NCBI RefSeq assembly: GCF_021559775.1
Contig: NZ_CP056047.1
Coordinates: 1,736,001 to 1,800,000, forward strand
Length of the DNA: 64,000 bases
From: Gillisella vitis
Lineage (GTDB): Bacteria > Pseudomonadota > Alphaproteobacteria > Rhizobiales > Rhizobiaceae
Direction: 5' to 3'
Below are positions 12,730 to 32,341 of this stretch, one piece after another (position 1 is the stretch's first letter; the number at the start of each line of letters is the position of its first letter). A model generated the notes under the pieces. That model was not told the DNA's origin, ran no database searches, and saw nothing but the letters and a program-made list of their open reading frames with translations. The position numbers and the translations under genes were made by a program.

Positions 12730-13402
12730 ACGCATCCTCATTCTCGGCGGCACAGCAGAGGCGGCAAAGCTTGCCGCAGAGCTGGTGGAGCAAGGTGAGG
12801 CTTTCGTCATTACCGCGCTTGCCGGACGCACCGAATATCCGGCCAGTCTGGCTGGAGACGTCCGCATCGGTGGCTTCGGCGGTGTCGATGGGCTGGTGGC
12901 CTATCTGAGGAGTGAAGGCATTACCAGGGTGATCGACGCCACACATCCATTTGCCCGGCAAATATCCGCCAATGCTGTCGAAGCCTGCCGAAAGGCGGAC
13001 GTACCGCTCATCGTCCATCTGCGCCCGCAATGGCTGGAGCAACCCGGCGACCGCTGGATCATGGTCGAGACACTGGAAGCCGCGGCCCATACATTGCCGG
13101 AGGGAGCCAGGGTCTTCCTGGCGCTGGGGCGGCAATATATCGACATATTTGCGCGGCGAACGGATTGCCACTTTGTGATCCGCATGGTGGATGCGCCATC
13201 AACGCCGCTACCCTTTACCCATGCCGACATCGTTGTCGGCAAAGCGGCGGCGGATTGGGAAGCAGAAAAAGCCCTGCTGGAAAGCCATGCCATCACCCAT
13301 CTCGTGACCCGCAATTCAGGCGGCGAGGCTAGCTATGGCAAGATTATCGCGGCCCGAAAATTGGGATTGCCCGTGGTGATGATCGCCCGCCCGGTCGTTT
13401 GA
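12713..13402 (+). CDS. cobK: Precorrin-6A / cobalt-precorrin-6A reductase
   Basis: A 229-residue NADPH-dependent reductase of the CobK/CbiJ family that reduces the macrocycle after ring contraction and C1 methylation. Motifs are ILILGGTAEAAKLA at the N terminus, IDATHPFARQISANAVEAC, and the C-terminal VTRNSGGEASYGKIIAARKLGLPVVMIARP. The start is a TTG at 12713 preceded by GGGAG and lying inside the end of cbiD. No ATG is in frame before the conserved LGG motif. It forms a two-gene plus-strand unit with cbiD. Confidence 0.93.
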   Translation: MPSPPERILILGGTAEAAKLAAELVEQGEAFVITALAGRTEYPASLAGDVRIGGFGGVDGLVAYLRSEGITRVIDATHPFARQISANAVEACRKADVPLIVHLRPQWLEQPGDRWIMVETLEAAAHTLPEGARVFLALGRQYIDIFARRTDCHFVIRMVDAPSTPLPFTHADIVVGKAAADWEAEKALLESHAITHLVTRNSGGEASYGKIIAARKLGLPVVMIARPVV

Positions 13403-16061: not shown

Positions 16062-16853
16062 TCAGACGGCCTGGTTTTTCTTGGATACACCCTTCTTGCC
16101 CACATTGCGCAGCACATGGGAAAAACCGGAATTGTAGAGATCGCTATCGCGGAAGGCGACATCGCCGAACACTTTGCCGACCATGATCAATGCCGTGCGG
16201 GTGATTTTCGCCTTGCGCACCTCCTCCGCCATATCCTTCAACGTGGTGCGGATGAACAATTCGTCCGGCCATGTGGCGCGGTAGGCGATCACCACGGGGC
16301 AGTCTTCGCCATAGTAAGGCGTCAGGGTTTCGCGGATATGGTTGAGATTGCGGATCGACAGATGGATGGCCAGCGTGGCGCGAGATTTTCCGAGGATTTC
16401 AAGCGTCTCGAATTCCGGCATCGACGATGCCTTCATCTCGGTACGGGTAATGATGACCGTCTGAGCCACTTCGGGCAGGGTCAGCTCGGTCTTCAGCCTT
16501 GCGGCAGCGGCCGCAAAGGCGGGTACGCCCGGCACCACGTCATAGGGAATATCCAGCGCGTCCAGCCTGCGCATCTGTTCGGCAATCGCCCCATAAATGG
16601 CCGGATCGCCAGAATGCACCCGCGCCACATCTTGGTCCCGTGCATGGGCTTCCTGGATTTCCTGGATGATCTCGTCCAGATGCATGGGCGCTGTGTCCTT
16701 GACCAGCGCATCAGCAGGCGCTGCCTTGACGATTTCCTCCGGCACCAGCGATCCGGCATAGAGGCAGACCGGGCAGCGCTCAATCAGCCTCAAGCCCCGC
16801 ACGGTGATCAGGTCGGGTGCGCCTGGACCGGCACCAATGAAATAAACCGTCAT
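16062..16853 (-). CDS. cobM: Precorrin-4 C11-methyltransferase
   Basis: A 263-residue SAM-dependent corrin methyltransferase (CobM/CbiF family). The start MTVYFIGAGPGAPDLITVRGLRLIERCPVCLYAGSLVPEE is diagnostic, with HSGDPAIYGAIAEQMRRLDALDIPYDVVPGVPAFAAAAA and ITRTEMKASSMPEFETL following. The frame is open to 16964, but the ATG at 16853 lies 1 nt after the cobJ stop codon (TGA-C-ATG) and fits the family N terminus. Last gene of the cbiX-cobH-cobL-cobI-cobJ-cobM unit. Confidence 0.95.
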   Translation of the reverse strand: MTVYFIGAGPGAPDLITVRGLRLIERCPVCLYAGSLVPEEIVKAAPADALVKDTAPMHLDEIIQEIQEAHARDQDVARVHSGDPAIYGAIAEQMRRLDALDIPYDVVPGVPAFAAAAARLKTELTLPEVAQTVIITRTEMKASSMPEFETLEILGKSRATLAIHLSIRNLNHIRETLTPYYGEDCPVVIAYRATWPDELFIRTTLKDMAEEVRKAKITRTALIMVGKVFGDVAFRDSDLYNSGFSHVLRNVGKKGVSKKNQAV

Positions 16854-16854
16854 G

Positions 16855-18723
16855 TCATGCGTCCTTCTGCATTGCCGTATCCGCCTTACCGGAATAGCCG
16901 CGCGGCGTGTAAACCCAGGTCTTGCCGTCACCGGTTTTGACAGTGCGGCTTTCCGACGAACCAACGATGACCACCGTCAGCATATCGACATCATCGACAT
17001 TCAAGCCAGCCAGTGGCACGACCCGCACCGTCTCGCCGGGGCGTCCGAGATTGGTGGCGAGAATGACCGGCGTATCAGCCGGGCGATAGGTCAGCAGCTG
17101 GTCGCGGGCATAGGCCAGCTGCGTGCGCCGCTTCATCGACACCGGATTGTAGAAAGCGATGACGAAATCGCCCTCGCCCGCCGCCTTGACCCGGCGCTGG
17201 ATATGCTCCCAGGGTGTCAACAGGTCCGACAGTGAAATGGTGCAGAAATCATGGCCGAGCGGCGCACCAATCCGGGCGGCGGCAGCCTGAAGCGCGGAAA
17301 TGCCCGGCGAAACCTGCACCTCGATCCGCTGCGCACCCCCAGAAATTCCACCCTTGTCCAAAAGCTCGAACACCAGCGTTGCCATGGCATAAATACCGGC
17401 ATCGCCGGAACAGACCAGCGCCACCGTCTTGCCCTCACCCGCCAGTTCCATCGCATGGACCACGCGGGCTTCTTCCTTGCCAAGGTCGAAATCATGCCGG
17501 GTCTTGCCCTCGGCAAGCGATCCGAGCAGATCGAGGTAAAGCGAGTAGCCAACGAGATCGCTCGACGCTGCCACCATGCGCGAGACTTCCGGCGAACGCC
17601 AACCTTCCGACCCCGGCCCGATGCCGACAACGAACAATGTCCCGCGGGCGCGGCCAAAGCTTGTTTTCTTGATGGGCTGGGCGCTGCGGCCAAGCGCAGC
17701 CGTCACGCCTTTCGATTTAATCTTGGGCAGAACCAGCACCCCATCCGAACCGGCCAACGCCAGCGCCGCGCCCTCCGCCACGCCGTGGCAGCCGACTTCG
17801 GCAAACACCACATCCGAAGGGTTTTGCAACCGGGGCCGTTCCTGTTCCAGCCGCTCGGCGGAAAAGAACCGAGCGGGCACGCCGAAATGCTCGGCCACCG
17901 CATGGATTGCCGCCTCATCGGCCTTGACGTCGATAGAGGCCACAGCACCAAGGCTTTGCGCGGCAAGACCCGATATATCCAATGCCTGCTGCGCCAGCGC
18001 AATCGCCTCTTCAACAGAGGCATGGCGCTCGCAGCCCATGCCCAGCACCAGGGTTTTCGGGTGATAGACCAGTTCCAGCGGCCCCGCCGTTCGGCGCTGA
18101 TCGGTGACGGTCAGCGTCACCTTGCCCTCGTCGTCAAAGGCTAGACGCGAAGCCGCCAGCCAATCCGCATCGCCAACCAGGCGGACGCTTGCCCCGGCCA
18201 CCAATTCGGCCATGACGGTCTTGGCCTGTTCAGGATTGGCCAGCGCATAGCCCTCCGATGGCGCATCCAAAGCCACACCGAACCGCAGATCGCCTGCCGT
18301 GGTAATCGCCGCATGGGCATTGAGAGCCACAGCAACGGTGCGGGCCAGATCATTAGCGCCGTGGTGGCCGCCCAGCAGTGGCACGACAGAATTGCCATCC
18401 TCGGACACGCACAGCACCGGTGGTTCGGACTGCTTATCGGCAAGCAATGGTGCCAGCAGCCGGATCAACGCGCCCGATGCCATGATTGCGATGATCGGAC
18501 GGCCAGCAGAAAACAACGCCCGGACATGGCTTTTCACATCGTCAAAGCTCTGATCCGCCCCGTCCACGCGGGAGGCGACAGCGTGAACCTCACCGCCAAC
18601 AGCCTCGGCAATGCGCCGCGCCAAGGCCAAGGCCGTTGGCATCAGAATGACAATAGCGGGTTTTGTATTGTCGTTTTTTTCAGAGCCAGTTTTTTCAGGG
18701 CCGTTTTTTTGAGGCGTCGTCAT
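16855..18723 (-). CDS. cobJ: Fused CbiG - precorrin-3B C17-methyltransferase (CbiG-CobJ)
   Basis: A 622-residue fusion of two pathway enzymes. Residues 22-140 form the CbiG N-terminal domain (IIAIMASGALIRLLAPLL, GGHHGAN at 119-124). Residues 140-215 form a linker or middle domain, and 222-345 the CbiG C-terminal/CobE-like domain (LVLGMGCERHASVEEAI, VFAEVGCHGVAEGAAL). From about 361 comes a complete CobJ/CbiH methyltransferase (GTLFVVGIGPGSEGWRSPEV, LVCSGDAGIYAMA, AAARIGAPLGHDFCTISLSDLLTPW). CbiG opens the delta-lactone in the early-cobalt pathway, and CobJ methylates C17 and contracts the ring, so the two act consecutively. The first 20 residues are Lys/Glu-rich and low complexity. It overlaps the cobI stop by 1 nt. 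Confidence 0.94.
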   Translation of the reverse strand: MTTPQKNGPEKTGSEKNDNTKPAIVILMPTALALARRIAEAVGGEVHAVASRVDGADQSFDDVKSHVRALFSAGRPIIAIMASGALIRLLAPLLADKQSEPPVLCVSEDGNSVVPLLGGHHGANDLARTVAVALNAHAAITTAGDLRFGVALDAPSEGYALANPEQAKTVMAELVAGASVRLVGDADWLAASRLAFDDEGKVTLTVTDQRRTAGPLELVYHPKTLVLGMGCERHASVEEAIALAQQALDISGLAAQSLGAVASIDVKADEAAIHAVAEHFGVPARFFSAERLEQERPRLQNPSDVVFAEVGCHGVAEGAALALAGSDGVLVLPKIKSKGVTAALGRSAQPIKKTSFGRARGTLFVVGIGPGSEGWRSPEVSRMVAASSDLVGYSLYLDLLGSLAEGKTRHDFDLGKEEARVVHAMELAGEGKTVALVCSGDAGIYAMATLVFELLDKGGISGGAQRIEVQVSPGISALQAAAARIGAPLGHDFCTISLSDLLTPWEHIQRRVKAAGEGDFVIAFYNPVSMKRRTQLAYARDQLLTYRPADTPVILATNLGRPGETVRVVPLAGLNVDDVDMLTVVIVGSSESRTVKTGDGKTWVYTPRGYSGKADTAMQKDA

Positions 18724-19457
18724 TAAAGTCTTTCCGTTTGCGGAGCCGCGCCAAGCGCCCAGCCCTCTGCCCCCTGGTAAATCAGGATCATCGAGAAATA
18801 TGGGGCAACATCTTCCGCGACATCGCCTAGCGGCAGCAGGCGCTCGCTTTGCAGCGACACGCGCTCGACATAACCGGCATTGGCCGTCAGGCCCATGGTG
18901 TCGATCAGCGCCCGGATGCGGGGGAAATGCCGTCCCAATTTGATGATGGCGACGGCAGAGGCGCTTTCGATCCGGGCGCGCAGCACATCATTCTCCAGCG
19001 GGCCTGGTAGCACGGTCAGCACATCGTTGCGGGCCGCCAGCGGGCGGCCATAGGCAGCGGCGGCGGCCATCATCGACGAGACACCGGGAACAACTTCGGT
19101 CGGGTAGCGATGCGCCAGTCGCTCGAACAGATACATGAACGAGCCGTAGAAAAATGGATCGCCCTCACACAGCACCGCCACATCCGAACCGGCATCCAGA
19201 TGATGCGACAGGGTGACAGCGGCGGCGTCATAAATTTCCTGGGCTGGGTATCGCTCGACCCGCATCGGCACGATCATTGGCACTTCCAGCTGGTCGGCCC
19301 GCAGATAGGGCGCGGCAATCTGGCGGGCAAAGCTTGGACCGGTATCAGGTGCCGGATAGGCAACAACCGGCGCGGAGGTCAGGATGCGATGCGCCTTCAA
19401 GGTCATCAGTTCCGGGTCGCCGGGGCCGAGACCAAGGCCATAGAGTTTACCTGTCAT
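18723..19457 (-). CDS. cobI: Precorrin-2 C20-methyltransferase
   Basis: A 244-residue SAM-dependent methyltransferase acting on precorrin-2 (or its cobalt form; CobI/CbiL). It begins MTGKLYGLGLGPGDPELMTLKAHRIL and contains VAVLCEGDPFFYGSFMYLFERL and VVPGVSSMMAAAAAYGRPLA, the family's second and third SAM-site blocks. The ATG at 19457 overlaps the cobL stop by 4 nt (ATGA); the frame extends five codons further upstream but without support. Middle of the unit-C operon. Confidence 0.95.
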   Translation of the reverse strand: MTGKLYGLGLGPGDPELMTLKAHRILTSAPVVAYPAPDTGPSFARQIAAPYLRADQLEVPMIVPMRVERYPAQEIYDAAAVTLSHHLDAGSDVAVLCEGDPFFYGSFMYLFERLAHRYPTEVVPGVSSMMAAAAAYGRPLAARNDVLTVLPGPLENDVLRARIESASAVAIIKLGRHFPRIRALIDTMGLTANAGYVERVSLQSERLLPLGDVAEDVAPYFSMILIYQGAEGWALGAAPQTERL

Positions 19458-20680
19458 TTGGAAACACTCCATGTTGTCACCGGCATCAGCGATTTCCAGC
19501 CGCAGAACCGACCGACGGGTGCTGCGCGCGACACGGAAATCCGGCTCATCTCACCACCATGCAGGCTGCGCAAAGTCACAAGCTGTGCCTCGCCTTCCAA
19601 CGTCACGGCATTGGCGACCAGCCGCCCGCCTGGCTTCAGCGCCTGCCAGCAGGCCTCGAACAGACCGTCGGTGGTGATGCCGCCGCCAATGAAAATCACG
19701 TCCGGCGGATCAAGCTTCAGCAGCCCCGCCGGTGCTTCGGCCTCGACAATCTCCAGATCCGGCACGCCAAGCACCTCGGCATTGTCGCGCATCATCGCCA
19801 GCCGCTCCGGCTTCGGCTCGATTGCGATAGCGCGGGTGCCCATTCCAGTCCGCAGCCACTCAATCGCGATGGAGCCGCAACCGGCACCGACATCCCAGAG
19901 CAAAGCATTGGGAAACGGCGCCAGATGCGCAAGCGTTGCCGCCCTCACCTCACGTTTGGTCAATTGCCCATCGTGACGGAAGGCATCGTCCGGCAGGCCC
20001 GGCACCGGCGAGAGAAGCACTCCGGCAGCGGCGCAATCCACGGCAAGCGTGTTGAAATCAGCAATCCCCGGCAGCTGCGCCAGCAGGTCTTGCGCGGTGA
20101 CATGCAGGATGCGCTCCAGCGCGCCGCCCATATGTTCCAGCACATGCAGCATGGAGGCCCCAAAGCCACGCCGCACCAGCAGATCGGCGGCCTCGAAAAC
20201 CGTTTCGGCATTGGAGGTCAGGGCGAGGATACGCGCACCCGGCAGCACATGCCGGTTGAGATAGGACAGCGGGCGGCCATGCAGCGAAATCTGCGCCACA
20301 TTTTGCAGCGGCCAGCCAAGCCGGGCAGCCGCCAGCGAAAAGGCCGAGGGGCTGGGCAGAACCCGCATGTCTTCCGGCTGCACATAGCGCCGCAGCGTCG
20401 CACCTATGCCGAAATGCATGGGATCGCCGGTCGCCACCACCACGACCGGCGTGCCGCGCAGTGCCAGAAGCTGATCCAGTGTTTCCCGAAAACCAGCACC
20501 CCAGGTGAGGATGCGCCGCACATTGGGAATGGCATCGGCCACCGCATGTTCCAACCGCTCACCCAGCACCAGCACCTGCGCTTCGCTGAGATGGGCAAGC
20601 TGCTGCGGCGTCAGGCTGGCGAGACCGCCATCACCGATGCCGATAATGGTCAGCCATGGATCGCTGGTTGCCTCAGTCAT
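19454..20680 (-). CDS. cobL: Precorrin-6Y C5,15-methyltransferase (decarboxylating)
   Basis: A 408-residue bifunctional enzyme equal to CbiE plus CbiT. The CbiE-type methyltransferase spans about residues 10-210 (ITIIGIGDGG-like start, VVVVATGDPMHFGIGATL, LPSPSAFSLAAARLGWPL). The CbiT-type Rossmann methyltransferase starts near 235 with SAM motif I DVGAGCGS at 263-270. It methylates C5 and C15 and decarboxylates the acetate on ring C. The ATG at 20680 lies within the 3' end of the cobH fusion gene (8-nt overlap), a better choice than the upstream ATG at 20737. Confidence 0.95.
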   Translation of the reverse strand: MTEATSDPWLTIIGIGDGGLASLTPQQLAHLSEAQVLVLGERLEHAVADAIPNVRRILTWGAGFRETLDQLLALRGTPVVVVATGDPMHFGIGATLRRYVQPEDMRVLPSPSAFSLAAARLGWPLQNVAQISLHGRPLSYLNRHVLPGARILALTSNAETVFEAADLLVRRGFGASMLHVLEHMGGALERILHVTAQDLLAQLPGIADFNTLAVDCAAAGVLLSPVPGLPDDAFRHDGQLTKREVRAATLAHLAPFPNALLWDVGAGCGSIAIEWLRTGMGTRAIAIEPKPERLAMMRDNAEVLGVPDLEIVEAEAPAGLLKLDPPDVIFIGGGITTDGLFEACWQALKPGGRLVANAVTLEGEAQLVTLRSLHGGEMSRISVSRAAPVGRFCGWKSLMPVTTWSVSK

Positions 20681-22325
20681 TGGCGCCAAGCCCTCCCGCC
20701 AGCGCATTGACCGCAGCCGATGCCATGGCGGAACCACCTCGCCGACCTTGAACGGCTATGAACGGCACGCCCCGGCTGTTGGCGGCAAGCTCTGCCTTGC
20801 TTTCGGCTGCCCCGACAAAGCCAACCGGCAGACCGAGGATCAATGCTGGCTTCGGCGCTCCCTGATCCAGCAGTTCCAAGAGGCGAAACAGCGCCGTCGG
20901 CGCATTGCCGATGGCAACGACCGCGCCTTCCAACTGACCGGCCCAAAGATTGACCTGCGCTGCCGAGCGGGTATTGCCTGCCCAGGCGGCCAGTGGCCGC
21001 ACCCTGACATCATTGATCAGGCAGACCACTTCGTTTTCCGCGGGCAGAAGACTGCGGATAATGCCGTGCCGGACCATTTCCGCATCGCAGAGAATGGGCG
21101 CACCGGCGGCAAGTGCCGCAGCGCCTGCCTCAAAGGCACCCTGCGAAAACACGATGTCATCGGCCATATCGATCATGCCGCAGGCATGGATCAAGCGGAT
21201 CACCAGCGGCTGCATGACAGCAGGAAACCGGTCGAAATTGGCCTCGCGCCGGATAATCTCGAAGGACTGGCGGTAAATCTCGGCTGGCTGGCGGATATAG
21301 TCGAGGACTGGAATCTGCATGACGTCTTCCGTTGCGTCATCCGGCTCACCTAACGGAAGCTCTGCACCTGTGATGGCCAGATCTTCATGGCCAATGCCTA
21401 GCACCCAGCCCTCTTCCTGCGTCGTCACGTCAATCTCCTCATCCGAGAGCATACGGGGCCGTTCAAACAGCCGACCCAACATCCCGGCCGCGTCGAACCC
21501 CGCAAAGGCTCTCGCCACCCGGCGCACCTGCGCGGCATCCTTCACTTCATTCTCGTGATCCCCCAACGAAAACAGCGAGGGATAAATTTCCGCCAAAACG
21601 ACATGATGGCCGCCGCTGGAAAAATCCGGCTGGCCATCGAGCCGCCCAAAGGCACCCTCTGGTTTTTCCGCATGTCCAGCCGCAAAGCCAGTCTCAAACG
21701 GCCAGACCGCAATCTTGTCACGGTTCGGATGCCCGTCGAGAAAGGCACTCAACCGGGCAATGCCCAGCAGGCTCTGGCTGCCGACTGACCCGGCATAGGC
21801 TAGTTGCCAGACGGATTTTGCGCCGCGCGCATGGCGCTCCGAAAGCCGCAGGGTGAAAGGCGCGCTGGTGGGGGCCGCGGGCTTTGTCGCGGGCAGACCA
21901 TCCAGGTCCAGCGCCTGCGGCCTGCCCCAGAAGCGCAGCTCCCGAGCAAAATAATCCCGGTTCCAACGGGCAGCCAGCGCGAAACGGTTATTGGCGTTAT
22001 CAGCGCCGTCCTCAATCTCACGGGCAATGGCGCGCCACAGCCCTTGCCAACCCGACTCACCCGTCACCCGCTCTGCTGTGCCCGTGGGATAACCGAAGGC
22101 GAAATCGAAACCGGCCAGCAGGCGCTTTCCTGCCGCCAGCGCATCGCTGACCACAGTCTCAAACCGCGCCATGAAGGCGGCACGGGTGGGGAAGTTTTCC
22201 AGCCAGACGATTTCTGCCCCCGCCGCACCGCAATCGACAAGGCAGGCCCAGATGGAGTTCTTGCCCGTCACCGGCTTGGCTGCGCCGGACCAGTCCACGA
22301 TCAAGATGCGGTCGAATAAGGCCAT
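20673..22325 (-). CDS. cobH: Precorrin-8X methylmutase fused to a 335-residue N-terminal domain of unknown function
   Basis: A 550-residue fusion. Residues 336-550 are a complete CobH/CbiC methylmutase that moves the C11 methyl to C12 to give hydrogenobyrinic (or cobyrinic) acid. The active-site histidine is in VIRLIHACGM, with ILCDAEMVRHGI and PALILGLPVGFVGAAESK. Ordinary CobH is about 210 residues, so residues 1-335 are extra. That domain begins ILIVDWSGAAKP, has AGFDFAFGYP near residue 70 and NNRFALAARWN near 112, and looks like an RNase H-like fold reminiscent of DUF429; its function is unknown. The ATG at 21320 (MQIPVLDY) could in principle also start free CobH. It overlaps the cbiX stop by 1 nt. 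Confidence 0.9.
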   Translation of the reverse strand: MALFDRILIVDWSGAAKPVTGKNSIWACLVDCGAAGAEIVWLENFPTRAAFMARFETVVSDALAAGKRLLAGFDFAFGYPTGTAERVTGESGWQGLWRAIAREIEDGADNANNRFALAARWNRDYFARELRFWGRPQALDLDGLPATKPAAPTSAPFTLRLSERHARGAKSVWQLAYAGSVGSQSLLGIARLSAFLDGHPNRDKIAVWPFETGFAAGHAEKPEGAFGRLDGQPDFSSGGHHVVLAEIYPSLFSLGDHENEVKDAAQVRRVARAFAGFDAAGMLGRLFERPRMLSDEEIDVTTQEEGWVLGIGHEDLAITGAELPLGEPDDATEDVMQIPVLDYIRQPAEIYRQSFEIIRREANFDRFPAVMQPLVIRLIHACGMIDMADDIVFSQGAFEAGAAALAAGAPILCDAEMVRHGIIRSLLPAENEVVCLINDVRVRPLAAWAGNTRSAAQVNLWAGQLEGAVVAIGNAPTALFRLLELLDQGAPKPALILGLPVGFVGAAESKAELAANSRGVPFIAVQGRRGGSAMASAAVNALAGGLGAND

Positions 22326-23653
22326 CAGGTCTTCTTCATGGATTTTGGCCCGAGCGGATGATCCGCATGGGGGTAAGGCGCATGGGTATGGCTGTGGGCG
22401 TGTCCATGGTCGTGATGGTGGTCATGCCCGTGGTGGGCGTGTCCATGGTCGTGCGTGTGATCATGCCCATGGTGGTCGTGGCTATGGTCATGACCACAGC
22501 CGCAATCCGACCCGTGTTCGTGGACATGCGCCTTACCGCTGGACGGCGCATTCATCACCGCTTCCAGTCCCGCATCTGGGCTGGCATTCAGCAAATGCCC
22601 GTATTTGCCGCCAAGCGTTGTCGATGCGCCATAGTCGAAAGCCGGTTGCAGCGGGGCCGGATCGGCATGGCTATGCACCGGCGTCCACGGCAGGCCATGC
22701 TTGAGACAGAACGCCTGATCGCGGCAGGAGGCGTCGCAATCGCCCTTGCACGGACAGTCTTCCAGCCCGCCGCCAATGCCCTCGACATGATGGTGGTGGC
22801 TTTCCTGCGGCTGGCCGATATCGGCCTCGAAGCCTAGAACCTGTTCGCGGTATTTGCACATCTGGCAGTTCATCACCGCCGCCCCTTCGAGGATTTCGTG
22901 CACCCGGTCCTGAAAGGCATCCAGCACCAGCGGATGGTCGTTGAGATAGCTGGCCTTGACGAACTGGATATCCGGATGGCGGGCTGCCACCTCATCGGTA
23001 TAGCTGTAGATCCGCTTCACCAGCACGCCGGTAAACAGGAAATAGGGGAAGACGATAATGCGTTTGTAACCCAGTTTGGCGGCATGGGTCAGGCCCGGCT
23101 CCACCAGCGGAAAGGTCACGCCGGAATAACAGGTTTCGCCCCAGCCAAAGCCCATGCCTTCCCACAGCATCCGCATCACTTTGGTGGCGTTAGAATTGGC
23201 ATCGGGATCGGAAGAGCCGCGCCCGACCACCATCAGCAGCGTGTCATGCTTATCGACAAAACCCAGTTGCGCATTCGCCTCATCTACTGCTGCCTGGATG
23301 CGATCACCGGCAGCGCGGATCATCTTCAGGTCGATGCCAAGCTCGCGCCCATAGTTGATCACCATGCCCGGGTTCTGCGCCTGATAGGTATTCAGCACGG
23401 AGGGAATATCGTTCTTGGCATGGCCCGCCGCAAACAGCATGCCCGGCACGGCCAGAACCCGTGTCACGCCCTTTTCCCGCAAGCTGTCGAGACCTGCCGA
23501 GATCACCGGATTGCAGAATTCCAGATAGCCGTATTCGACGGGGAGGTCGGGATTGCGCGCTTTCAGCCCTTCGGCGATGACAGCGAATTCGCGCGCCGCA
23601 TTCTGGTTGCGGCTGCCATGTCCACAGACCATGATTCCGAGTTTTTCTGCCAT
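22325..23653 (-). CDS. cbiX: Long-form sirohydrochlorin cobaltochelatase CbiX with Cys cluster and His-rich tail
   Basis: A 442-residue chelatase that inserts Co2+ into sirohydrochlorin in the early-cobalt pathway. Two CbiX/CbiK-type half domains fill residues 1-255, with the metal/porphyrin-site histidines H12 (VCGHGSRN) and H78 (LFAAGHAKND). MNCQMC at 261-266 matches the MxCxxC [4Fe-4S] motif described for Bacillus megaterium CbiX. A further cluster CPCKGDCDASC (300-310) follows. Residues 376-432 are extremely His/Asp-rich, probably for cobalt storage or delivery. The frame is open to 23815, but the ATG at 23653 (MAEKLGIMVCGHG) has a GGGAGC ribosome-binding site. First gene of unit C; no B12 box is visible in its leader. 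Confidence 0.92.
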   Translation of the reverse strand: MAEKLGIMVCGHGSRNQNAAREFAVIAEGLKARNPDLPVEYGYLEFCNPVISAGLDSLREKGVTRVLAVPGMLFAAGHAKNDIPSVLNTYQAQNPGMVINYGRELGIDLKMIRAAGDRIQAAVDEANAQLGFVDKHDTLLMVVGRGSSDPDANSNATKVMRMLWEGMGFGWGETCYSGVTFPLVEPGLTHAAKLGYKRIIVFPYFLFTGVLVKRIYSYTDEVAARHPDIQFVKASYLNDHPLVLDAFQDRVHEILEGAAVMNCQMCKYREQVLGFEADIGQPQESHHHHVEGIGGGLEDCPCKGDCDASCRDQAFCLKHGLPWTPVHSHADPAPLQPAFDYGASTTLGGKYGHLLNASPDAGLEAVMNAPSSGKAHVHEHGSDCGCGHDHSHDHHGHDHTHDHGHAHHGHDHHHDHGHAHSHTHAPYPHADHPLGPKSMKKT

Positions 23654-23989
23654 GACAAAAGGCTCCCTGCTTCGTTTCGTTTTATGTACGAAGCGCCGGA
23701 GCCGCCGGTTTTTCCGGCATCTCCTATGGCCTTTGGGACAGCTCCGGAATTGGCCCCCTGATTGGGTCAGCCGCACCGGACGATTCCAGCCTGTCGAACA
23801 GGCGCCGTCGCACATCTTGAGGGGCAGGAATAGCGAAGGCCCGGTTCCGGGTCAAACCGCAATTTCAGCCGGAGACGATCCGCCACGGTCAAGATCATTC
23901 TCACGGAAAATTTTCCTCTCAAACCGATTACCGTTTCGCAGGGAATGCAGTAAGAGGCTTGATACGCCCCTCTTCTGCGGATTTCCCCG
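23654..23989. other. Divergent intergenic region between cbiX and the TSUP permease gene
   Basis: The region has no protein gene. It carries a degenerate palindromic repeat (23918-23953) and a short GCCGG-TTTTT-CCGGC hairpin near 23703. I looked for the cobalamin riboswitch B12 box (as at 31929-31944) and found none, so cbiX control is not by an obvious second riboswitch. Confidence 0.55.
23918..23953. repeat. TGCATAAT-family palindromic repeat, degenerate copy 4
   Basis: TCAAACCGATTACCGTTTCG and the trailing AATGCAGTAA match the core and right end of the other copies. The left TGCATAAT arm is reduced to AAAATTTTCCTC. It lies 37 nt before the start of the rightward TSUP gene. Confidence 0.5.
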
Positions 23990-25432: not shown

Positions 25433-26077
25433 TCAGAACTCCACACCCAGCTGCGCCTTGATGCCGGAGCGAAACGGGTGTTTGACCAGTTCCATTTCCG
25501 TCACCAGATCGGCAATCTCGATCAGCTCATCCTTGGCATTGCGGCCCGTCAGCACCACATGGGTCATGGGCGGTTTTTCTTCCGACAGGAAGGCAACGAC
25601 TTCGGCCAGGTCAATATAGTCGTAGCGGATGGCGATATTGATTTCGTCGAGCAGCACCATGCTGTTGGCGGGATCGCGGATCAGTTCCTTGGCCTTGTCC
25701 CAGGCGGCTCTGGCCATGGCCATGTCGCGGGCCTTGTCCTGGGTCTCCCAGGTAAAGCCCTCGCCCATGGTGTGGAAAGCGCAGAGGTCGGAAAAATGCC
25801 GCAGGATCAGGTCGCGTTCGCCGGTTGACATCGCCCCCTTGATGAATTGCACCACCGCGCATTTCTTGCCATGGGCGATATGGCGGAAAATCATCCCGAA
25901 GGCTGCCGAGGACTTGCCCTTGCCCTTGCCGGTATGGACGATGATCAGGCCCTTTTCGCCGGTCTTGGTCGCCATGATCTTGTCGCGCGCCGCCTTTTTC
26001 TTCGCCATCTTCTCGGCGTGGCGGGCAAGATCGTCCGACGGTGCTGCAACGGCTCCGCTATCGACGGTTTCGGTCAT
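25433..26077 (-). CDS. cobO: Cob(I)yrinic acid a,c-diamide adenosyltransferase
   Basis: A 214-residue CobO/CobA(BtuR)-type corrinoid adenosyltransferase that adds the 5'-deoxyadenosyl ligand to cobalt. The ATP-binding P-loop is GLIIVHTGKGKGKSSAAFGMIFR (about residues 44-66). Also visible are VVQFIKGAMSTGERDLI, HTMGEGFTWETQD, VLLDEINIAIRYDYID and VVLTGRNAKDELIEIADLVTEME. The first 40 residues are a Lys/Ala-rich extension. It is last in the cobP-cobW-cobN-cobO unit and its start overlaps the cobN stop by 4 nt. Confidence 0.96.
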   Translation of the reverse strand: MTETVDSGAVAAPSDDLARHAEKMAKKKAARDKIMATKTGEKGLIIVHTGKGKGKSSAAFGMIFRHIAHGKKCAVVQFIKGAMSTGERDLILRHFSDLCAFHTMGEGFTWETQDKARDMAMARAAWDKAKELIRDPANSMVLLDEINIAIRYDYIDLAEVVAFLSEEKPPMTHVVLTGRNAKDELIEIADLVTEMELVKHPFRSGIKAQLGVEF

Positions 26078-29000
26078 AGGGCATTCTCCAATTGGATAGG
26101 CTGTAAAATCTGGGCGTCAGAAATCTGGGACAAATGATATCTCGCCGAATTGCTGCGCGGCGTCCAGAGGCCGCGATCAATGGCTTCCAACAGCCGCTGC
26201 GACATGTCCTTCAAGGCAGCCGGGTTTTTATCGGCCATGAAAGCCCGCACCCGGTCATCGCCAATAAAAGCCCGGTAGACGGCGTCGAAATGCGGCTGGC
26301 GCACGGCGCCGGTGGTGGCGGCAAAGGCGAACAGATAATCCACGGAGGCGGCAATTTCGAACGCGCCCTTATAGCCGTGACGCATCACGCCTTCGATCCA
26401 TTTCGGATTGACGACACGAGCGCGCACCACCCGGCCAATCTCTTCCTCCAGCGTGCGGATCACAGGCTTTTCCGGTCGGGAATGGTCGTTGTGGTAGACG
26501 GTTGGCCTGCGACCCGAGAGCTGCTCGACCGCTGCCGTCATGCCACCCTCGAACTGATAGTAATCGTCGCTATCCAGCAGATCATGCTCGCGATTGTCCT
26601 GGTTCTGCACCACGGCCTGCACGCCCTGTAAGCGCTCTTCGAACAGGCCGCGCTCAGCCCTGCCTTCTTCGCCCGCGCCGTAAGCGTAAGCGCCCCAGAC
26701 CAAATAGGCCTCGGCCAGATCGGCCCGGCGCTCCCAGCCCTTTTCATCGATCAAGGCTTGCAGGCCCGCACCGTAAGCGCCGGGTTTCGAGCCGAACACC
26801 CGGTAGCCCGCCCGGCGGCTGGCGGTCTTTTCGTCCAGCCCCTGTTGCTGAAACAAGACTGTTTCAGCCTTGATGCGCGCTGCAATCGGGTTATCCGCCG
26901 CATCCTCATCCAGAGCGCCAACTGCTCGCACCGCCTTGTCGAACAAGGCGATCTGCTCAGGAAAGGCATCGCGGAAAAACCCTGATATCCGCAGCGTTAC
27001 ATCGACACGCGGGCGACCCAAAATTGCCTGGGGAATGATCTCATAGCCGGTCACCCGGCGGGAGGCGCTGTCCCAGAGCGGCTTGACGCCGATCAGCGCC
27101 AGCGCCTGGGCAATATCATCGCCGCCCGTGCGCATATTGCTGGTACCCCAGGCGGTAATGCCAAACGATACCGGCCACTCGCCATGGTCCTGCACATAGC
27201 GGGCAACCAGCAGTTCGGCGGATTTCTGGCCGAGTTGGTAAGCGGCAGGCGTCGGCACGGCGCGGCTATCGACGGAGTAGAAATTACGCCCGGTCGGCAG
27301 CACATCCGGTCGTCCCCGCGTCGGCGCACCGGACGGACCGGGAGCGACGAAGCGGCCAGACAGTCCTTTGAGCAGTCCGGCGATTTCCGCTGGGCCGGAT
27401 TTGATCACGCTCGGTTTCAGCCGGGCTTCAACCTCATCCAGAACAGCGCTTGTGTTTTGCCAGCCTTGGGGACAGGCAAACCTGCACGACACCATGTCTG
27501 CGGCCAGCAATTCGATCCGCTCGACCGTATCGCCCTTGGTGCGCCAGGGGGCTTGCGTCAGGTTTCTCAGAAGGTCGGGCTGCGGCCCGTCCCATATATC
27601 GGAAAACACACAGTCCAGAGGGTCGAAATCGGCCCAACCGCCAAGCGCATCGGCAGCAATCGCCCGGTGCAGACTGGCATCGCCGCCCTGGCCCCCTTGG
27701 CTCTGCCCTTGTCCACGCGGCACCCGCGCCAAGGCCACGACCAGATCGGTCAGCAACCGGCCTTGCGGTGCCTGCCCGAAAATATGCAGGCCGTCGCGGA
27801 TCTGCATTTCCTTGAGGTCGCAGAGATAGGCGTCGAGCTTGGTCAGCTTGACCTCCTCCGCCTCGCCCCCGGCAATGCCCGCATCCTCATCCAAACCGAT
27901 ATCGGCGACCAGATCAAGGATCTGGGATTTCAACAAGGTAACCCGGCGTGGATCGCCGCCCATCGCCTGGTAATATTCATCGACCAGCGCTTCCAGATCC
28001 TTCAGCGGACCATAGCTTTCCGCCCTGGTCAGCGGCGGGGTCAGGTGATCGATAATAACGGCGCTCGCCCGGCGCTTGGCCTGCGTACCCTCACCGGGAT
28101 CGTTGACGATGAAGGGATAGAGATGCGGCACCGGGCCCAGCACCGCTTCGGGATAACAGCTCTCGCTCAGCGCCAGTGCCTTGCCCGGCAACCATTCCAG
28201 ATTGCCGTGCTTGCCCATATGAATGATGGCGTGAACGCCAAATCTCTGGCGGAGAAATGCGTAGAAGGCGAAATAGCCGTGGGGCGGCACCAGATCCGGC
28301 GAATGATAGCTGTCCTTCGGATCGATATTATAGCCCCGCGCTGGCTGAATGCCGACCATCACCTTGCCGAACCGCAGCAGCGGCAGCGCGAAACCATCCC
28401 CGGCAAAAAATGGATCGGCCTGCGGCTCCCCCCATCTGTCGCTAATCTCCCGCCTGATCTTGTCAGGCAGGTTCCTGAAAAACCGCTGGTAATCGGCAAG
28501 CGGCAGGGTCTCGCGGATCACCCTGCCCTTCACCGCCGCATTGGTGACACCTGCCATCAGTGTCGCCATCAGCGCATCAGAGTTGGCGGGCAGCACGCCG
28601 GTGTCATAGCCTTCGGCCTTCAGGGCCTTCAACACTTCAAGGCTGGCGGCAGGGGTATCCAGCCCGACACCATTGCCCAGGCGTCCATCCCGGTTGGGAT
28701 AGTTGGCCATGATCAGGGCGACCTGCCGTTCTGGCGCAGGCGTGTGCCTCAGCCGCGCCCAATTGGCGGCCAGGCTGGCGACGAACGCCATGCGGCCCTG
28801 GTCCGGCGCATGGCTGACCAAGGTGGTTTCCACCCGCGCATCATAGCGGGCAGCGGATTTGAACGAGACAGCCCGGGTCAACACCCGCCCGTCCACCTCC
28901 GGCAGCGCGACATTCATGGCGAGATCGCGGGCACTCAGCCCTTGCATCGATGCGTCCCACACAGAGCGTGGCGACGAGGAAAACAGCGCCTGCAATACCA

Positions 29001-29856
29001 CGGCACCCTGCTCGTCCAGCACGGTCGAGGGCGCATCAGTGCCCGGAACGGACACGGCAAAGCCTGTCGTATTGACCACCACATCCGGTGCGGCCTGTTT
29101 AAAAATCATCCGCAGCGTCTCAACGCAGACAGCATCTTTCAGACTGGCGACAAACACCGGCAAGACCCGCAGGCCCTGCGCTTGCAGCGCCTCAATCATC
29201 GCCTCAACCGGCGCGGTCTCGCCGCTCTGGACGAGGGCGCGGTAAAAACAGAGGGCGGCAATCGGCCCCTCGCCTGCAAGCGTCTGCCACGCCGGAACGT
29301 CGATCGCCCCTCGCCCCGGCCACCACAGCCCGGCTTTCAGCAGCGGCAAAGCCTCTTGCGGTTTTGGTGCATTGGTCAGCAGCGCTTGCGCAAAAGCCAC
29401 GAAATGGCTGGCATTGCTATCGCCGCCCTCAATCAGATAGGCCCAAAGCGCCGATAAATCCGAGGCATCCAGATTTGAAAAAGCCTCCAGCCCGGGATCC
29501 GGCTTGTCGTCGCCGGGCAGGACGGCAATTTTTATCCCATGGCGGCGGGCGCAGGCGTGCAGCGCTTCCAGCGCATAATGAAAATAGCTGGCCCCACCCA
29601 GCGCCCTGACAACGATCAGTTTCGCATGACGGGCGGTGCGCTCGATATAGGTATCGACCGACATCGGATGTTTCAGCGCCATCAGGCTGGCCAGCCGCCA
29701 TGTCGCAGTCTCGGCTTGCCGCGCCAGCGCCGCCGCTATGGCCGATAGCTCGGTATCGGCGGCAGACAGAAACAGGATATCCCCTGGCGTCTGGCCAAGG
29801 TCTATCGCGTCATCCCCGTCGCTGATCGAGCCTTGCTGGGCAAGCAGAAGATGCAT
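26074..29856 (-). CDS. cobN: Cobaltochelatase large subunit CobN
   Basis: A 1260-residue subunit of the ATP-dependent aerobic cobaltochelatase (CobN-CobS-CobT), which inserts Co2+ into hydrogenobyrinic acid a,c-diamide. Length and motifs match: ALIMANYPNRDGRLGNGVGLDTPAASLEVLKAL, the magnesium-chelatase-H-like PPHGYFAFYAFLRQRFGVHAIIHMGKHGNLEWLPGKALALS, and the C-terminal FGITAWGTSNMRTGGDDIAQALALIGVKPLWD with DITLRISGFFRDAFP-like sequence. cobS and cobT are not in this window and would be needed elsewhere. It starts 3 nt after the cobW stop and overlaps cobO by 4 nt. A long open frame on the opposite strand is only its shadow. Confidence 0.97.
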   Translation of the reverse strand: MHLLLAQQGSISDGDDAIDLGQTPGDILFLSAADTELSAIAAALARQAETATWRLASLMALKHPMSVDTYIERTARHAKLIVVRALGGASYFHYALEALHACARRHGIKIAVLPGDDKPDPGLEAFSNLDASDLSALWAYLIEGGDSNASHFVAFAQALLTNAPKPQEALPLLKAGLWWPGRGAIDVPAWQTLAGEGPIAALCFYRALVQSGETAPVEAMIEALQAQGLRVLPVFVASLKDAVCVETLRMIFKQAAPDVVVNTTGFAVSVPGTDAPSTVLDEQGAVVLQALFSSSPRSVWDASMQGLSARDLAMNVALPEVDGRVLTRAVSFKSAARYDARVETTLVSHAPDQGRMAFVASLAANWARLRHTPAPERQVALIMANYPNRDGRLGNGVGLDTPAASLEVLKALKAEGYDTGVLPANSDALMATLMAGVTNAAVKGRVIRETLPLADYQRFFRNLPDKIRREISDRWGEPQADPFFAGDGFALPLLRFGKVMVGIQPARGYNIDPKDSYHSPDLVPPHGYFAFYAFLRQRFGVHAIIHMGKHGNLEWLPGKALALSESCYPEAVLGPVPHLYPFIVNDPGEGTQAKRRASAVIIDHLTPPLTRAESYGPLKDLEALVDEYYQAMGGDPRRVTLLKSQILDLVADIGLDEDAGIAGGEAEEVKLTKLDAYLCDLKEMQIRDGLHIFGQAPQGRLLTDLVVALARVPRGQGQSQGGQGGDASLHRAIAADALGGWADFDPLDCVFSDIWDGPQPDLLRNLTQAPWRTKGDTVERIELLAADMVSCRFACPQGWQNTSAVLDEVEARLKPSVIKSGPAEIAGLLKGLSGRFVAPGPSGAPTRGRPDVLPTGRNFYSVDSRAVPTPAAYQLGQKSAELLVARYVQDHGEWPVSFGITAWGTSNMRTGGDDIAQALALIGVKPLWDSASRRVTGYEIIPQAILGRPRVDVTLRISGFFRDAFPEQIALFDKAVRAVGALDEDAADNPIAARIKAETVLFQQQGLDEKTASRRAGYRVFGSKPGAYGAGLQALIDEKGWERRADLAEAYLVWGAYAYGAGEEGRAERGLFEERLQGVQAVVQNQDNREHDLLDSDDYYQFEGGMTAAVEQLSGRRPTVYHNDHSRPEKPVIRTLEEEIGRVVRARVVNPKWIEGVMRHGYKGAFEIAASVDYLFAFAATTGAVRQPHFDAVYRAFIGDDRVRAFMADKNPAALKDMSQRLLEAIDRGLWTPRSNSARYHLSQISDAQILQPIQLENAL

Positions 29857-29859
29857 GGC

Positions 29860-30933
29860 TTACGCTGCCGCCCGGATGGCATCGGCAATCGCCAATTGGT
29901 CGAGATCATGCAGGCCGATCACCACCAGCCGCGTCGCCCGCTGCTCGCCAGAGGCCCAGGGCCGGTCATAATATTGGTCAATGCGGCTGCCGACCGCCTG
30001 CACCACCAGCCGCATCGGCTTGCCCGGCACATCGACGAAGCCTTTCAGCCGCAGCACGTCATGCGCTTCGATCACGGTCTTCAAGCCATCGACAAAACGG
30101 TCCGGCTCGCGCACCTGCGGCAGATCGACAACAAAACTGTCGAATTCGTCGTGGTCGTGATGATGGTCATGGTCCTCACCGCTCGCATGCAGCGCCTCAT
30201 GCTCCAGCTCGTGATGGGACTTGCGATTGTCGATATCGGCTTCCGAACCCGCACCGATACCAAGCAGCACCATGACAGGTACATCGCCATTCTTCGCCTC
30301 GATCAATGTCGGCTTGCGGCTCATCCGTGCGGTCACATCGGTTCGCACTTTGGCAAGACCATCGGCATCGAGCAGATCGGTCTTGTTGAGCACGATCAGG
30401 TCGGCGCAGGTCAACTGGTCCTCGAACAGCTCCTCAATCGGGCTTTCATGGTCGAGACTGTCATCAGCAGCGCGCTGGGCATCGATCCGGTCGTGGTCGT
30501 CGGCAAACCGGCCAGCGGCGACAGCGGCGCTATCGACCACCGTCACAACACCATCCACGGTCACGCGAGTGCGGATGTCCGGCCAGTTGAAGGCGGCCAC
30601 CAGCGGCTGCGGCAAAGCAAGGCCGGAGGTCTCGATGACGATATGGTCGGGCAACACATCCCGTGCCAGAAGCTTTTGCATGGTCGGCACGAAATCATCA
30701 GCAACGGTGCAGCAGATACAGCCATTGGTCAGTTCGATAATGTCGTCCTCGGTGCAGGTCTCGGCGCCGCAGCCTTTCAGCACTTCGCCATCCACACCCA
30801 GATCACCAAACTCGTTGATAACAAGCGCAATTTTCTTGCCACCCGCATTCATCAGCATATTGCGGATGATCGTCGTCTTGCCCGCGCCGAGAAAGCCGGT
30901 GATAACCGTGACGGGAATCTTCTTTTGCAACAT
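29860..30933 (-). CDS. cobW: CobW, COG0523 GTPase metallochaperone
   Basis: A 357-residue G3E-family GTPase thought to deliver cobalt to the CobN chelatase. The Walker A motif is GFLGAGKTT (residues 13-21). The metal-binding NGCICC motif is near residue 72, followed by the GTP-specificity NKTD block (LIVLNKTDLLDADGL). A histidine-rich loop (ASGEDHDHHHDHDEFD) lies near residue 245 before the C-terminal CobW_C domain (LKGFVDVPGKPMRLVVQAVG). It lies 3 nt after cobP and 3 nt before cobN, strong context for the cobalt-specific subgroup rather than the zinc-linked ones. Confidence 0.96.
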   Translation of the reverse strand: MLQKKIPVTVITGFLGAGKTTIIRNMLMNAGGKKIALVINEFGDLGVDGEVLKGCGAETCTEDDIIELTNGCICCTVADDFVPTMQKLLARDVLPDHIVIETSGLALPQPLVAAFNWPDIRTRVTVDGVVTVVDSAAVAAGRFADDHDRIDAQRAADDSLDHESPIEELFEDQLTCADLIVLNKTDLLDADGLAKVRTDVTARMSRKPTLIEAKNGDVPVMVLLGIGAGSEADIDNRKSHHELEHEALHASGEDHDHHHDHDEFDSFVVDLPQVREPDRFVDGLKTVIEAHDVLRLKGFVDVPGKPMRLVVQAVGSRIDQYYDRPWASGEQRATRLVVIGLHDLDQLAIADAIRAAA

Positions 30934-31866: not shown

Positions 31867-31919
31867 GACAACCTCCGTGCTGGCGTCGGGGATCTCTCCC
31901 CCAATTGGGCGTAAAGCCC

Positions 31920-32280
31920 GTCACGGACGGCAGGTCTCCTGGCTCACAGCGTCAAACCGGTACCATAACGGCACCCGTTCGCAGATTTCCCTCACCTTCC
32001 CGGAGGTCATAGCAAAAGCGAAAAGGCGGACGATTCGTAGATAAAGAGGCGTCCAACCCCGGCAGATCGCTTTGCCACTCCAGTGGCTTTTCCGGTCCAT
32101 CCGCTCATCGCACCGGCCACACCACGCGGCCCGCCATGCAAGGATCGTCAAAACCGGATGGAAAACCCTCGCTGTTCTACAGTCGCGGGGTCGGCTGCGT
32201 TTGGCATGCCCTGTCTGGGTCCACGCCTTCGCATTCCCTTTTGCTTTCCAGCCTCAATCTCTTCAGGCCGAAAACCATCC
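31920..32280 (-). promoter_or_regulatory. Cobalamin riboswitch controlling the cobP-cobW-cobN-cobO unit
   Basis: On the minus strand all core elements are in order. A 5' GGTTTTCGGCCTGAAG lies near 32275, CCGCGACTGTA at 32188-32178, the hairpin GCCACTGGAGTGGC at 32087-32074, GGGAAGGTGAGGG near 32003-31991, and the B12 box AGCCAGGAGACCTGCC at 31944-31929. Adenosylcobalamin binding would repress the downstream genes. The element spans about 360 nt, longer than the roughly 200 nt usual for the class. The extra length comes from two additional predicted stems, CCATCCG/CGGATGG (32161-32155 with 32103-32097) and GCAAAGCGA/TCGCTTTTGC (32075-32067 with 32021-32012). A GGGCTTTACGCCC hairpin follows the B12 box. 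Confidence 0.95.
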
Positions 32281-32341
32281 ACATCTAGGGTTAGCAGAAT
32301 GAGACTTTAAGTCAATCATACAAGCCATGAGCTACTACCCA

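What the first reader, a model, noticed from the sequence alone, without database searches (positions are those of the whole stretch)
21321..22325. 335-residue domain of unknown function fused to the N terminus of CobH
Seen: the 550-residue gene has a full CobH methylmutase from residue 336, so two thirds of the protein is additional. The N-terminal domain has two acidic motifs (VDWSGAAKP; AGFDFAFGYP) spaced like the catalytic carboxylates of RNase H-like folds and recalling DUF429. A fusion in a tight biosynthetic operon normally implies a role in the same pathway, and CobH is the last ring-modifying step. A nuclease-like fold there would be unexpected.
Basis: partly seen in the sequence, partly recalled or inferred. 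Interest (0 to 1): 0.65.

Follow-up and report, generated by a model that had tools for sequence, protein, structure and literature searches.

The report
RNase H-like domain fused to CobH
A vitamin B12 enzyme in this plant-associated bacterium carries an extra front half that is predicted to fold like a DNA/RNA-cutting enzyme and keeps its likely active-site residues; the same piece turns up, fused or free, beside vitamin B12 and molybdenum-cofactor genes in related bacteria, but what it cuts is unknown.

Summary
Confirmed: window 20673-22325 (-) is one 550-residue gene, CobH (349-543) behind an N-terminal domain (about 1-317) and a disordered linker. The domain has no Pfam or PHROGs match. 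AlphaFold2 (pLDDT 89.6) gives RNase H topology; structural neighbours are mostly RuvC-like at modest Z (5.3-6.8). Four carboxylates (D11, D74, E246, D263) are conserved in 42/42 and, with one D11E, 63/63 rows. DUF429 is at best a remote relative. NCBIfam knows the domain as the 'unknown domain' of a MobB fusion (PRK14495).

Of 43 sampled class genomes with the strong domain I read 39 neighbourhoods: 11 adjoin CobH (6 fused), 5 other cobalamin genes, 3 Moco genes, 20 none recognised. 108 of 138 CobH genomes lack the strong domain; 13 of 43 carriers lack CobH; one 92%-complete carrier also lacks CobU, MoaC and MobB. Fusion state changes at least 9 times on the tree.

Best reading: an active metal-dependent phosphodiesterase or nuclease, co-expressed with cofactor genes and loosely tethered to CobH, not a corrin-ring step.

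The parts
20673..22325 (-). Complete fused gene, 550 aa (RNase H-like domain + linker + CobH)
21375..22325 (-). N-terminal globular domain, residues 1-317; predicted RNase H-like fold (E6-11, E25-33, E36-45, H48-64, E69-73 ... E242-246, H262-279)
   Evidence: homologues
22293..22295 (-). Codon of D11, end of strand 1, putative catalytic carboxylate
   Evidence: D in 42/42 and 62/63 rows (E in L115)
22104..22106 (-). Codon of D74, just after strand E69-73, putative catalytic carboxylate
   Evidence: 42/42 and 63/63 rows
21588..21590 (-). Codon of E246, end of strand E242-246, putative catalytic carboxylate
   Evidence: 42/42 and 63/63 rows
21537..21539 (-). Codon of D263, start of helix H262-279, putative catalytic carboxylate
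   Evidence: 42/42 and 63/63 rows
21303..21374 (-). Linker, residues 318-341, pLDDT below 50, variable among relatives
20676..21302 (-). CobH precorrin-8X methylmutase domain, residues 342-550 (PF02570 at 349-543)
21186..21188 (-). Codon of H380 of the HACG motif (its role as the CobH catalytic His is recalled, not from a call); H in 30 of 31 aligned fusions
22325..23815 (-). CbiX chelatase gene directly upstream; its stop shares one base with the ATG of the fused gene (TGATG)
19454..20737 (-). CobL (CbiE-CbiT), next gene downstream; its longest frame (GTG start) overlaps the end of the fused gene
18723..19472 (-). CobI precorrin-2 C20-methyltransferase
16855..18723 (-). CobJ with an N-terminal CbiG-like part
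   Evidence: CobJ over its cut-off, CbiG models below theirs
16062..16964 (-). CobM precorrin-4 C11-methyltransferase
25433..26077 (-). CobO adenosyltransferase
26074..29856 (-). CobN cobaltochelatase subunit
29860..30933 (-). CobW
31912..32294 (-). Cobalamin riboswitch about 1 kb upstream of cobW (the stretch between was not examined)

Best explanation
The N-terminal domain is a member of an unnamed bacterial family with an RNase H-like (RuvC/DUF429-type) fold and an intact set of four acidic residues. It most likely hydrolyses phosphodiester bonds with two metal ions (inferred). It is an accessory enzyme, not a corrin-ring step. In many alphaproteobacterial cobalamin operons its gene lies between cbiX and cobH, and there the neighbouring reading frames have fused and split repeatedly. 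In the window the two enzymes are tethered by a flexible linker and made together, and CobH does its own chemistry. Shown: the gene structure, the conservation, the gene neighbourhoods, the repeated changes of fusion state on the tree. Predicted only: fold and linker flexibility. Inferred only: catalysis, substrate, independence of the two activities.
For: Fold and residues. Family and its bridge towards DUF429. Locus: 45 of the 80 best named loci hold a CobH fusion and 12 more a separate domain gene directly before cobH (a sample of close kin). Repeated fusion and fission: at least 9 label changes forced by well-supported branches. Both halves under purifying selection. Independence: 108 of 138 CobH genomes lack the strong domain (18 of these 108 have a weak relative) and 13 of 43 domain genomes lack CobH; G198 has the domain without a match to CobH, CobU, MoaC or MobB; L190 has a decayed N-domain before an intact CobH; L098 has an intact N-domain with its CobH histidine replaced. 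No stable interface predicted: pTM 0.59 for the whole protein, linker pLDDT below 50. Precedent: the domains of the RNase HI-CobC fusion MSMEG_4305 are reported to act separately in vivo (PMC7466739, abstract and Discussion read).
Against: No activity has been shown for any member. Foldseek found no PDB match with E at or below 1e-3, and its two top rows are hexokinases, not nucleases; Z 5.3-6.8 lies in the range the tool calls common. Coordinates could not be inspected, so the four carboxylates were not shown to lie together. Stand-alone copies beside CobU, CobB, CobD and CbiG seem more frequent than an unrelated passenger should give, which favours a real tie to cobalamin. The deep forks of the tree are weak, so whether the cobH position is ancestral is open.
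Confidence: 0.5

Rival explanations
1. The domain is a dedicated cofactor-pathway phosphoesterase that acts on a nucleotide-bearing or phosphorylated intermediate or by-product shared in kind by cobalamin and molybdenum-cofactor synthesis; fusion to CobH or MoeA keeps it with its pathway.
For: Neighbours across lineages are cobalamin genes (CbiX, CobH, CobU, CobT, a CobC-like phosphatase, CobB, CobD/CbiB, CbiG) or Moco genes (FdhD, MobA, MobB, MoeA). CobH co-occurs with the strong domain: 30/43 versus 108/342, odds ratio 5, p 2e-6, not corrected for kinship. NCBIfam knows it as a MobB fusion.
Against: G198 (92% complete) keeps the domain without a match to CobH, CobU, MoaC or MobB. Among CobH-less genomes, carriers do not clearly have CobU more often than others: 4 of 13 against 10 of 67 random controls. 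The weak relatives show no significant excess of CobH (18/43 versus 90/299, p 0.16). 108 of 138 CobH genomes lack the strong domain. CobK is present in 31 of 32 CobH genomes with and without it, so it does not stand in for that enzyme. 20 of 39 sampled neighbourhoods read showed no cofactor gene among those recognised.
Confidence: 0.27
2. The domain is a housekeeping RNA- or DNA-processing nuclease whose tie to cobalamin genes is only historical (drift), as proposed for MSMEG_4305.
For: Some stand-alone copies lie beside RNA-maturation genes: an RsmD-type methyltransferase (L116 by Pfam; L128, L140, L147 by BLAST cluster), a pseudouridine synthase (L128 by Pfam, L147 by cluster), a CCA-adding enzyme in convergent order (L069 by Pfam; L067, L068, L070, L072 by cluster). 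A DUF429 protein of M. smegmatis is reported to have RNase HII activity (PMC4429107, passage read).
Against: Drift does not easily explain different cobalamin neighbours of stand-alone copies in separate lineages. The RNA-gene neighbourhoods are each confined to one or two families.
Confidence: 0.15
3. The domain is a non-catalytic scaffold or regulatory part of CobH.
For: One divergent fusion (L190, G043) has lost the strand-1 Asp and a central segment yet keeps CobH (read by eye).
Against: The four carboxylates are kept in the 42 rows of A1 and the 63 rows of A3 except one D11E (the two sets share the window and a few identical loci); many copies occur without CobH beside them; no predicted interface.
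Confidence: 0.07

Closest known systems
NCBIfam NF011066 / PRK14495, 'MobB/unknown domain fusion protein'
   Same: Its unknown domain (model positions about 167-452) is this domain: 42 of 42 members of A1 match, best E 7.7e-85.
   Different: By its name and positions the model has MobB in front; here the domain precedes CobH. The whole-protein cut-off (596 bits) is not met (156.8 bits for the window domain).
DUF429 (PF04250), placed in the RNase H-like superfamily, clade D with RuvC/YqgF (PMC3985635, abstract and passages read)
   Same: Conserved Asp on strands 1 and 4, a DxPxG-like motif at strand 4 (DFAFGYP against DMPIGLP), a later E-x-x-P motif.
   Different: No Pfam match; direct profile comparison no better than a control; DUF429's C-terminal DDxxDA motif is not kept as such; extra conserved motifs (NNRF, PFWG, GSVGSQ, WPFET, EEGWILG).
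Mycobacterial RNase HI-CobC fusion (Rv2228c / MSMEG_4305)
   Same: An RNase H-fold domain fused N-terminally to a cobalamin enzyme through a variable linker (PMC7466739, PMC4429107).
   Different: A type I RNase H, another cobalamin enzyme (CobC), reported only in Actinomycetales; taken here as an independent fusion of a different RNase H branch (inference).
RuvC/YqgF-type Holliday junction resolvases
   Same: Predicted fold (6p7b Z 6.8, 4ld0 Z 6.3, 1nu0 Z 5.3) and, as recalled, acidic residues at comparable places.
   Different: No sequence match in PDB; about twice the length, with large inserts.
CobH / CbiC (PF02570)
   Same: The C-terminal domain is an ordinary CobH with the HACG histidine.
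   Different: Carries the extra N-terminal domain.

Membership tests
RNase H-like superfamily | Core topology strand-strand-strand-helix-strand followed by further helix/strand elements | tested here: met
   AlphaFold2 model, pLDDT 89.6, pTM 0.88: E6-11, E25-33, E36-45, H48-64, E69-73... E242-246, H262-279. Prediction only.
RNase H-like superfamily | Structural similarity to solved members | tested here: inconclusive
   VIA-align Z 5.3-6.8 over 107-161 residues, mostly RuvC-like, in the 50 rows listed; Foldseek none with E at or below 1e-3, top rows hexokinases.
RNase H-like superfamily | Conserved acidic residues on strands 1 and 4 and in the C-terminal part | tested here: met
   D11, D74, E246, D263 in 42/42 rows and, with one D11E, in 63/63 rows. 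That they meet in space was not measured.
DUF429 (PF04250) | Pfam match over the gathering score | tested here: not met
   No match for the window domain; 1 of 42 members at E 0.059.
DUF429 (PF04250) | Profile-profile similarity above control | tested here: not met
   E 0.055 and 0.017 against 0.057 for a CobH control. Indirect link: A1-A7 99.9% probability; A7 member L204 matches PF04250 with 22.6 bits, cut-off 23; but A7 as a whole against DUF429 E 0.086.
NF011066 (PRK14495) | Whole-protein curated score 596 (MobB plus domain) | tested here: not met
   156.8 bits; only the domain part is shared.
NF011066 (PRK14495) | Match to the non-MobB domain part | tested here: met
   42 of 42 members of A1 at E at most 1e-3.
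CobH / CbiC (PF02570) | Pfam and NCBIfam curated cut-offs | tested here: met
   238.4 bits (cut-off 22.5) and 313.8 bits (cut-off 276).
Active nuclease | Metal-dependent hydrolysis of nucleic acid | not testable with these tools
   Needs purified protein.

The most novel reading that the evidence does not exclude
The domain is the founding member of a cofactor-linked RNase H-fold phosphoesterase family that hydrolyses a nucleotide-bearing corrinoid or molybdopterin species (repair, salvage or clean-up): a use of the RNase H fold on small-molecule cofactors rather than on nucleic acid, repeatedly fused to CobH, MoeA and MobB.
Probability: 0.12. Interest if true: 0.8.

Novelty: new variant of a known kind. 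Interest (0 to 1): 0.46.

Why it matters
It gives a fold, a putative active site and a testable substrate question to an alphaproteobacterial domain that the Pfam copy searched does not hold and NCBIfam lists as an 'unknown domain'. A second fusion of an RNase H-fold protein to a B12 enzyme, beside the mycobacterial RNase HI-CobC one, asks whether such fusions are drift or a real link between nucleic-acid or nucleotide hydrolysis and corrinoid supply. Ties to molybdenum-cofactor genes widen that question.

Tried and rejected
Viral contigs: no relative (one scan with a single protein, which reaches close relatives only). PHROGs: no match. PDB by sequence: no meaningful match. Replacement of CobK: rejected, CobK is present in 31 of 32 CobH genomes tested (11 with the domain by CobH, 21 without the strong domain); the one miss is an 80% complete genome. 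Direct membership in DUF429: tested, not met. Obligate cobalamin role: rejected from genome content. CobU as a marker for carriers without CobH: no clear excess, 4 of 13 against 10 of 67 controls over the cut-off. A separate start for CobH at M336: the ATG exists, but the nearest relative L075 has Lys there, so it is not conserved. In the tree L042, L055 and L066 were labelled 'other' because their cobalamin neighbours were found later; the CobH-fusion count does not depend on that. Families absent are not thereby excluded. Literature: searches for the fusion, PRK14495, DUF429, and RNase H with cobalamin showed no description of this domain in their listings (open-licence PMC papers only).

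Dropped rows and partial reads: L073 (a weak relative) was left out of A1 and the tree, and L130 (identical to another row) out of the tree; A3 holds the window plus 62 of the 80 named loci (cut them to 65 by similarity, and I left out L075, L084 and L095); A4 holds the window plus 30 of the 32 fusions (L075 and L095 left out); neighbourhoods were read for 39 of the 43 strong genomes (G011, G016, G071, G290 not opened); of the 48 loci with neither CobH, CbiX, MobB nor MoeA nearby, neighbours were scanned with Pfam only within one or two genes, and that tally showed 25 of 119 families, so a cofactor gene may have been missed; of 6 plasmid records 3 were opened; of 30 regions with weak relatives 25 went into A7, with L073 and L074; of 90 random controls drawn 67 were searched; I left out second matches of the same genome. 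The 80 named loci are the best matches and so lean towards close kin of the window. Some rows are the same sequence from two collections (for example L036 and L127).

Full report
Observation. The frame at 20673-22325 (-) has 550 codons from ATG to stop. Residues 349-543 match CbiC/CobH (PF02570, 238.4 bits), and the NCBIfam equivalog for precorrin-8X methylmutase is exceeded (313.8 bits, cut-off 276). Residues 1-335 match no Pfam family up to E 1 and no PHROG. The upstream cbiX stop and the ATG of this gene share one base (TGATG). Neighbours by NCBIfam and Pfam: CbiX and CobL, CobI, CobJ with a CbiG-like part, CobM, CobO, CobN, CobW; a cobalamin riboswitch lies at 31912-32294 (-). The nearest named relative of the domain is Agrobacterium vitis NCPPB 3554 (94% identity); the own genome holds a single copy of the domain at E at most 1e-3.

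What the domain is. NCBIfam matches residues 4-212 to the non-MobB part of NF011066 (PRK14495, 'MobB/unknown domain fusion protein'; E 6e-45 for the whole protein). All 42 members of my first alignment match that model (best E 7.7e-85). A protein search of 385 genomes of the class found it in 52; a profile found it in 86, of which 43 strongly (E below 1e-80). AlphaFold2 on 63 rows gives pLDDT 89.6 and pTM 0.88, with RNase H order of elements: three strands, a helix, a strand, then inserts, a strand (242-246) and a helix (262-279). In the structural second look the 50 listed entries are mostly RuvC-like folds (poxvirus resolvases, RuvC, Ydc2, YqgF, Cas12a/Cas9, Spt6, terminase nucleases), Z 5.3-6.8, with a few others such as pantothenate kinase and MutS. 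Foldseek alone had no match with E at most 0.001, and its two best rows were hexokinases (E 0.17), whose ATPase fold is known to resemble RNase H (the resemblance is noted in PMC3985635 for actin-like ATPases). The fold is therefore well supported by topology and by consistency, weakly by score.

Active site. D11 ends strand 1, D74 follows strand 4, E246 ends the late strand, D263 begins the C-terminal helix. They are D/D/E/D in 42 of 42 rows of A1 and in 63 of 63 of A3 except one D11E (L115). PMC3985635 (abstract and passages read) places DUF429 in the RNase H-like superfamily near RuvC/YqgF and names conserved residues on the first and fourth strands as the potential active site. I could not measure distances in the model.

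Relation to DUF429. Direct evidence fails: 1 of 42 members at E 0.059; hhalign E 0.055 and 0.017 against 0.057 for a CobH control. There is a bridge: weak relatives found by the profile (27 proteins, A7) match the domain profile at 99.9% probability, E 1.3e-34, and one of them, L204 (E 4e-15 to the domain profile), reaches 22.6 bits against DUF429's cut-off of 23; 2 of 27 match DUF429 at E up to 1. But A7 as a profile against DUF429 is again at noise (E 0.086). I file the domain in the RNase H-like superfamily by predicted fold, and as a remote, unproven relative of DUF429, not as a member.

Where it lives. Among the 80 best named loci, 45 have the domain and CobH in one frame, 12 have a separate domain gene directly before cobH (L082, L083, L084, L089, L090, L091, L093, L130, L131, L135, L138, L149), one contig ends inside the gene (L085) and 22 lie elsewhere. 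This sample leans to close kin. In the sampled class genomes 43 carry the strong domain; 11 have it within 10 kb of CobH, 6 of them fused (window, L035, L038, L040, L057, L058). I read 28 of the 32 others. Five adjoin other cobalamin genes: CobU in L036, L048 and L066, CobB in L055, CobD/CbiB in L042 with CobT and a CobC-like phosphatase nearby. Three lie in FdhD-MobA-MobB-(domain)-MoeA clusters, fused to MoeA in two (L064, L065). The other 20 showed no cofactor gene among those recognised; recognition was partial (BLAST with a set of cob and Moco references, and Pfam for near neighbours with a capped listing). Outside the sample, Pelagibacterium L129 has it beside CbiG with CobB nearby. On plasmids it is fused to MoeA/Glp in Salipiger and Alloyangia and free between mobB and moeA in Ruegeria TM1040 (3 of 6 records opened). 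One MAG has it in frame with a hydantoinase A (L047). With an assumed chance rate of 1.25% for a cobalamin gene as direct neighbour, 5 of 32 has p 5e-5, and 3 of 32 (the three CobU cases fall in one clade of the tree) p 0.007; the rate is my assumption, and 4 of the 32 were not read.

Need for B12. CobH is present in 138 of 385 genomes; 30 of 43 strong-domain genomes have it, against 108 of the other 342 (odds ratio 5, p 2e-6, kinship not corrected). So the domain goes with cobalamin synthesis, but 108 of 138 CobH genomes do without the strong form (18 of them have a weak relative) and 13 of 43 carriers lack CobH. Weak relatives show no significant excess of CobH (18/43 versus 90/299, p 0.16), though two lie near it (G043, G269). 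Of the 13 carriers without CobH, CobU is over the cut-off in 4, against 10 of 67 random genomes with neither, MoaC in 11, MobB in 6. Ten of the 13 are at least 90% complete. G198 (1.5 Mb, 92% complete) has the domain and no match to CobH, CobU, MoaC or MobB. Absence in draft genomes is soft evidence.

Fusion history. On a tree of 103 rows, CobH fusion (42 rows) needs 15 changes, at least 9 forced by well-supported branches, and fused and free forms are interleaved even within Rhizobiaceae. Deep forks are weak and the root is only for drawing, so the ancestral position is not settled. The linker is variable and predicted disordered, with pTM 0.59 for the whole protein. Both halves are under purifying selection (dN/dS 0.05-0.20 for the N-domain, 0.04-0.16 for CobH, 12 chosen pairs, several with saturated dS). 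Two exceptions point to independence: L190 keeps CobH with a shortened N-domain that lacks the strand-1 Asp, and L098 keeps the N-domain while the CobH histidine is Glu, its CobH scoring below the equivalog cut-off (239.8 against 276).

Precedent and mechanism. In mycobacteria an RNase HI is fused to CobC; the authors found the domains functionally separate in vivo and suggest drift (PMC7466739: abstract and Discussion read; PMC4429107: passages read). PMC4429107 also states that a DUF429 domain of M. smegmatis has RNase HII activity. By analogy, and from the conserved carboxylates, I infer a metal-dependent phosphodiesterase that is co-expressed with cobalamin genes and tethered to CobH without sharing its chemistry. 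The cobalamin and Moco neighbours of free copies keep a pathway-related substrate open (rival, 0.27).

Novelty. The domain has no Pfam entry in the copy searched, and the listings of my paper searches showed no description of it. RNase H-like folds and an RNase H-cobalamin fusion are known, so I rate it a new variant of a known kind.

Noticed in passing
L080, L081, L085, L086 at about 8916 (after the N-domain, in frame): The region after the N-domain holds an in-frame translated repeat (PAGHLPHxGG, in three of the four followed by SPRVGEM) that also occurs elsewhere in rhizobial loci (L083, L084, L088), as if a small repeat element had inserted into the disordered linker without breaking the gene.
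   Followed up: partly
window 22325-23815 (-): The CbiX frame has 496 residues with a Cys-rich stretch and a long His/Asp-rich C-terminal tail, and the same region also encodes CobN, so two kinds of chelatase are present.
   Followed up: no
L175-L204, L073, L074: A second, broader family (IDWSGA ... GAKQVGKGxLAGMR ... EIYPxLF ... DxxxDALxxAAGLR ... EGWIFGV) occurs in many genomes of the class, lies between this domain and DUF429, and 25 of 27 members match no DUF429 model.
   Followed up: partly
L047:3357-6677: The domain is in one frame with a hydantoinase A / oxoprolinase, a fusion partner outside cofactor synthesis; single draft contig.
   Followed up: partly
window 16855-18723 (-): CobJ carries an N-terminal CbiG-like part (622 aa), another fusion in the same cluster.
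   Followed up: no
window 23990-24775 (+): A gene related to PRK10621 (258.5 bits, below that model's cut-off of 383) on the opposite strand lies between cobO and cbiX.
   Followed up: no
window 12731-13402 (+): The own CobK match covers model positions 1-219 of 234 and is reported with one TGA inside; the frame stops right after '...MIARPVV', so its C-terminus may be slightly short.
   Followed up: partly
L067-L070, L072: In one group of loci the free domain gene lies convergent with a CCA-adding enzyme gene in conserved order.
   Followed up: no
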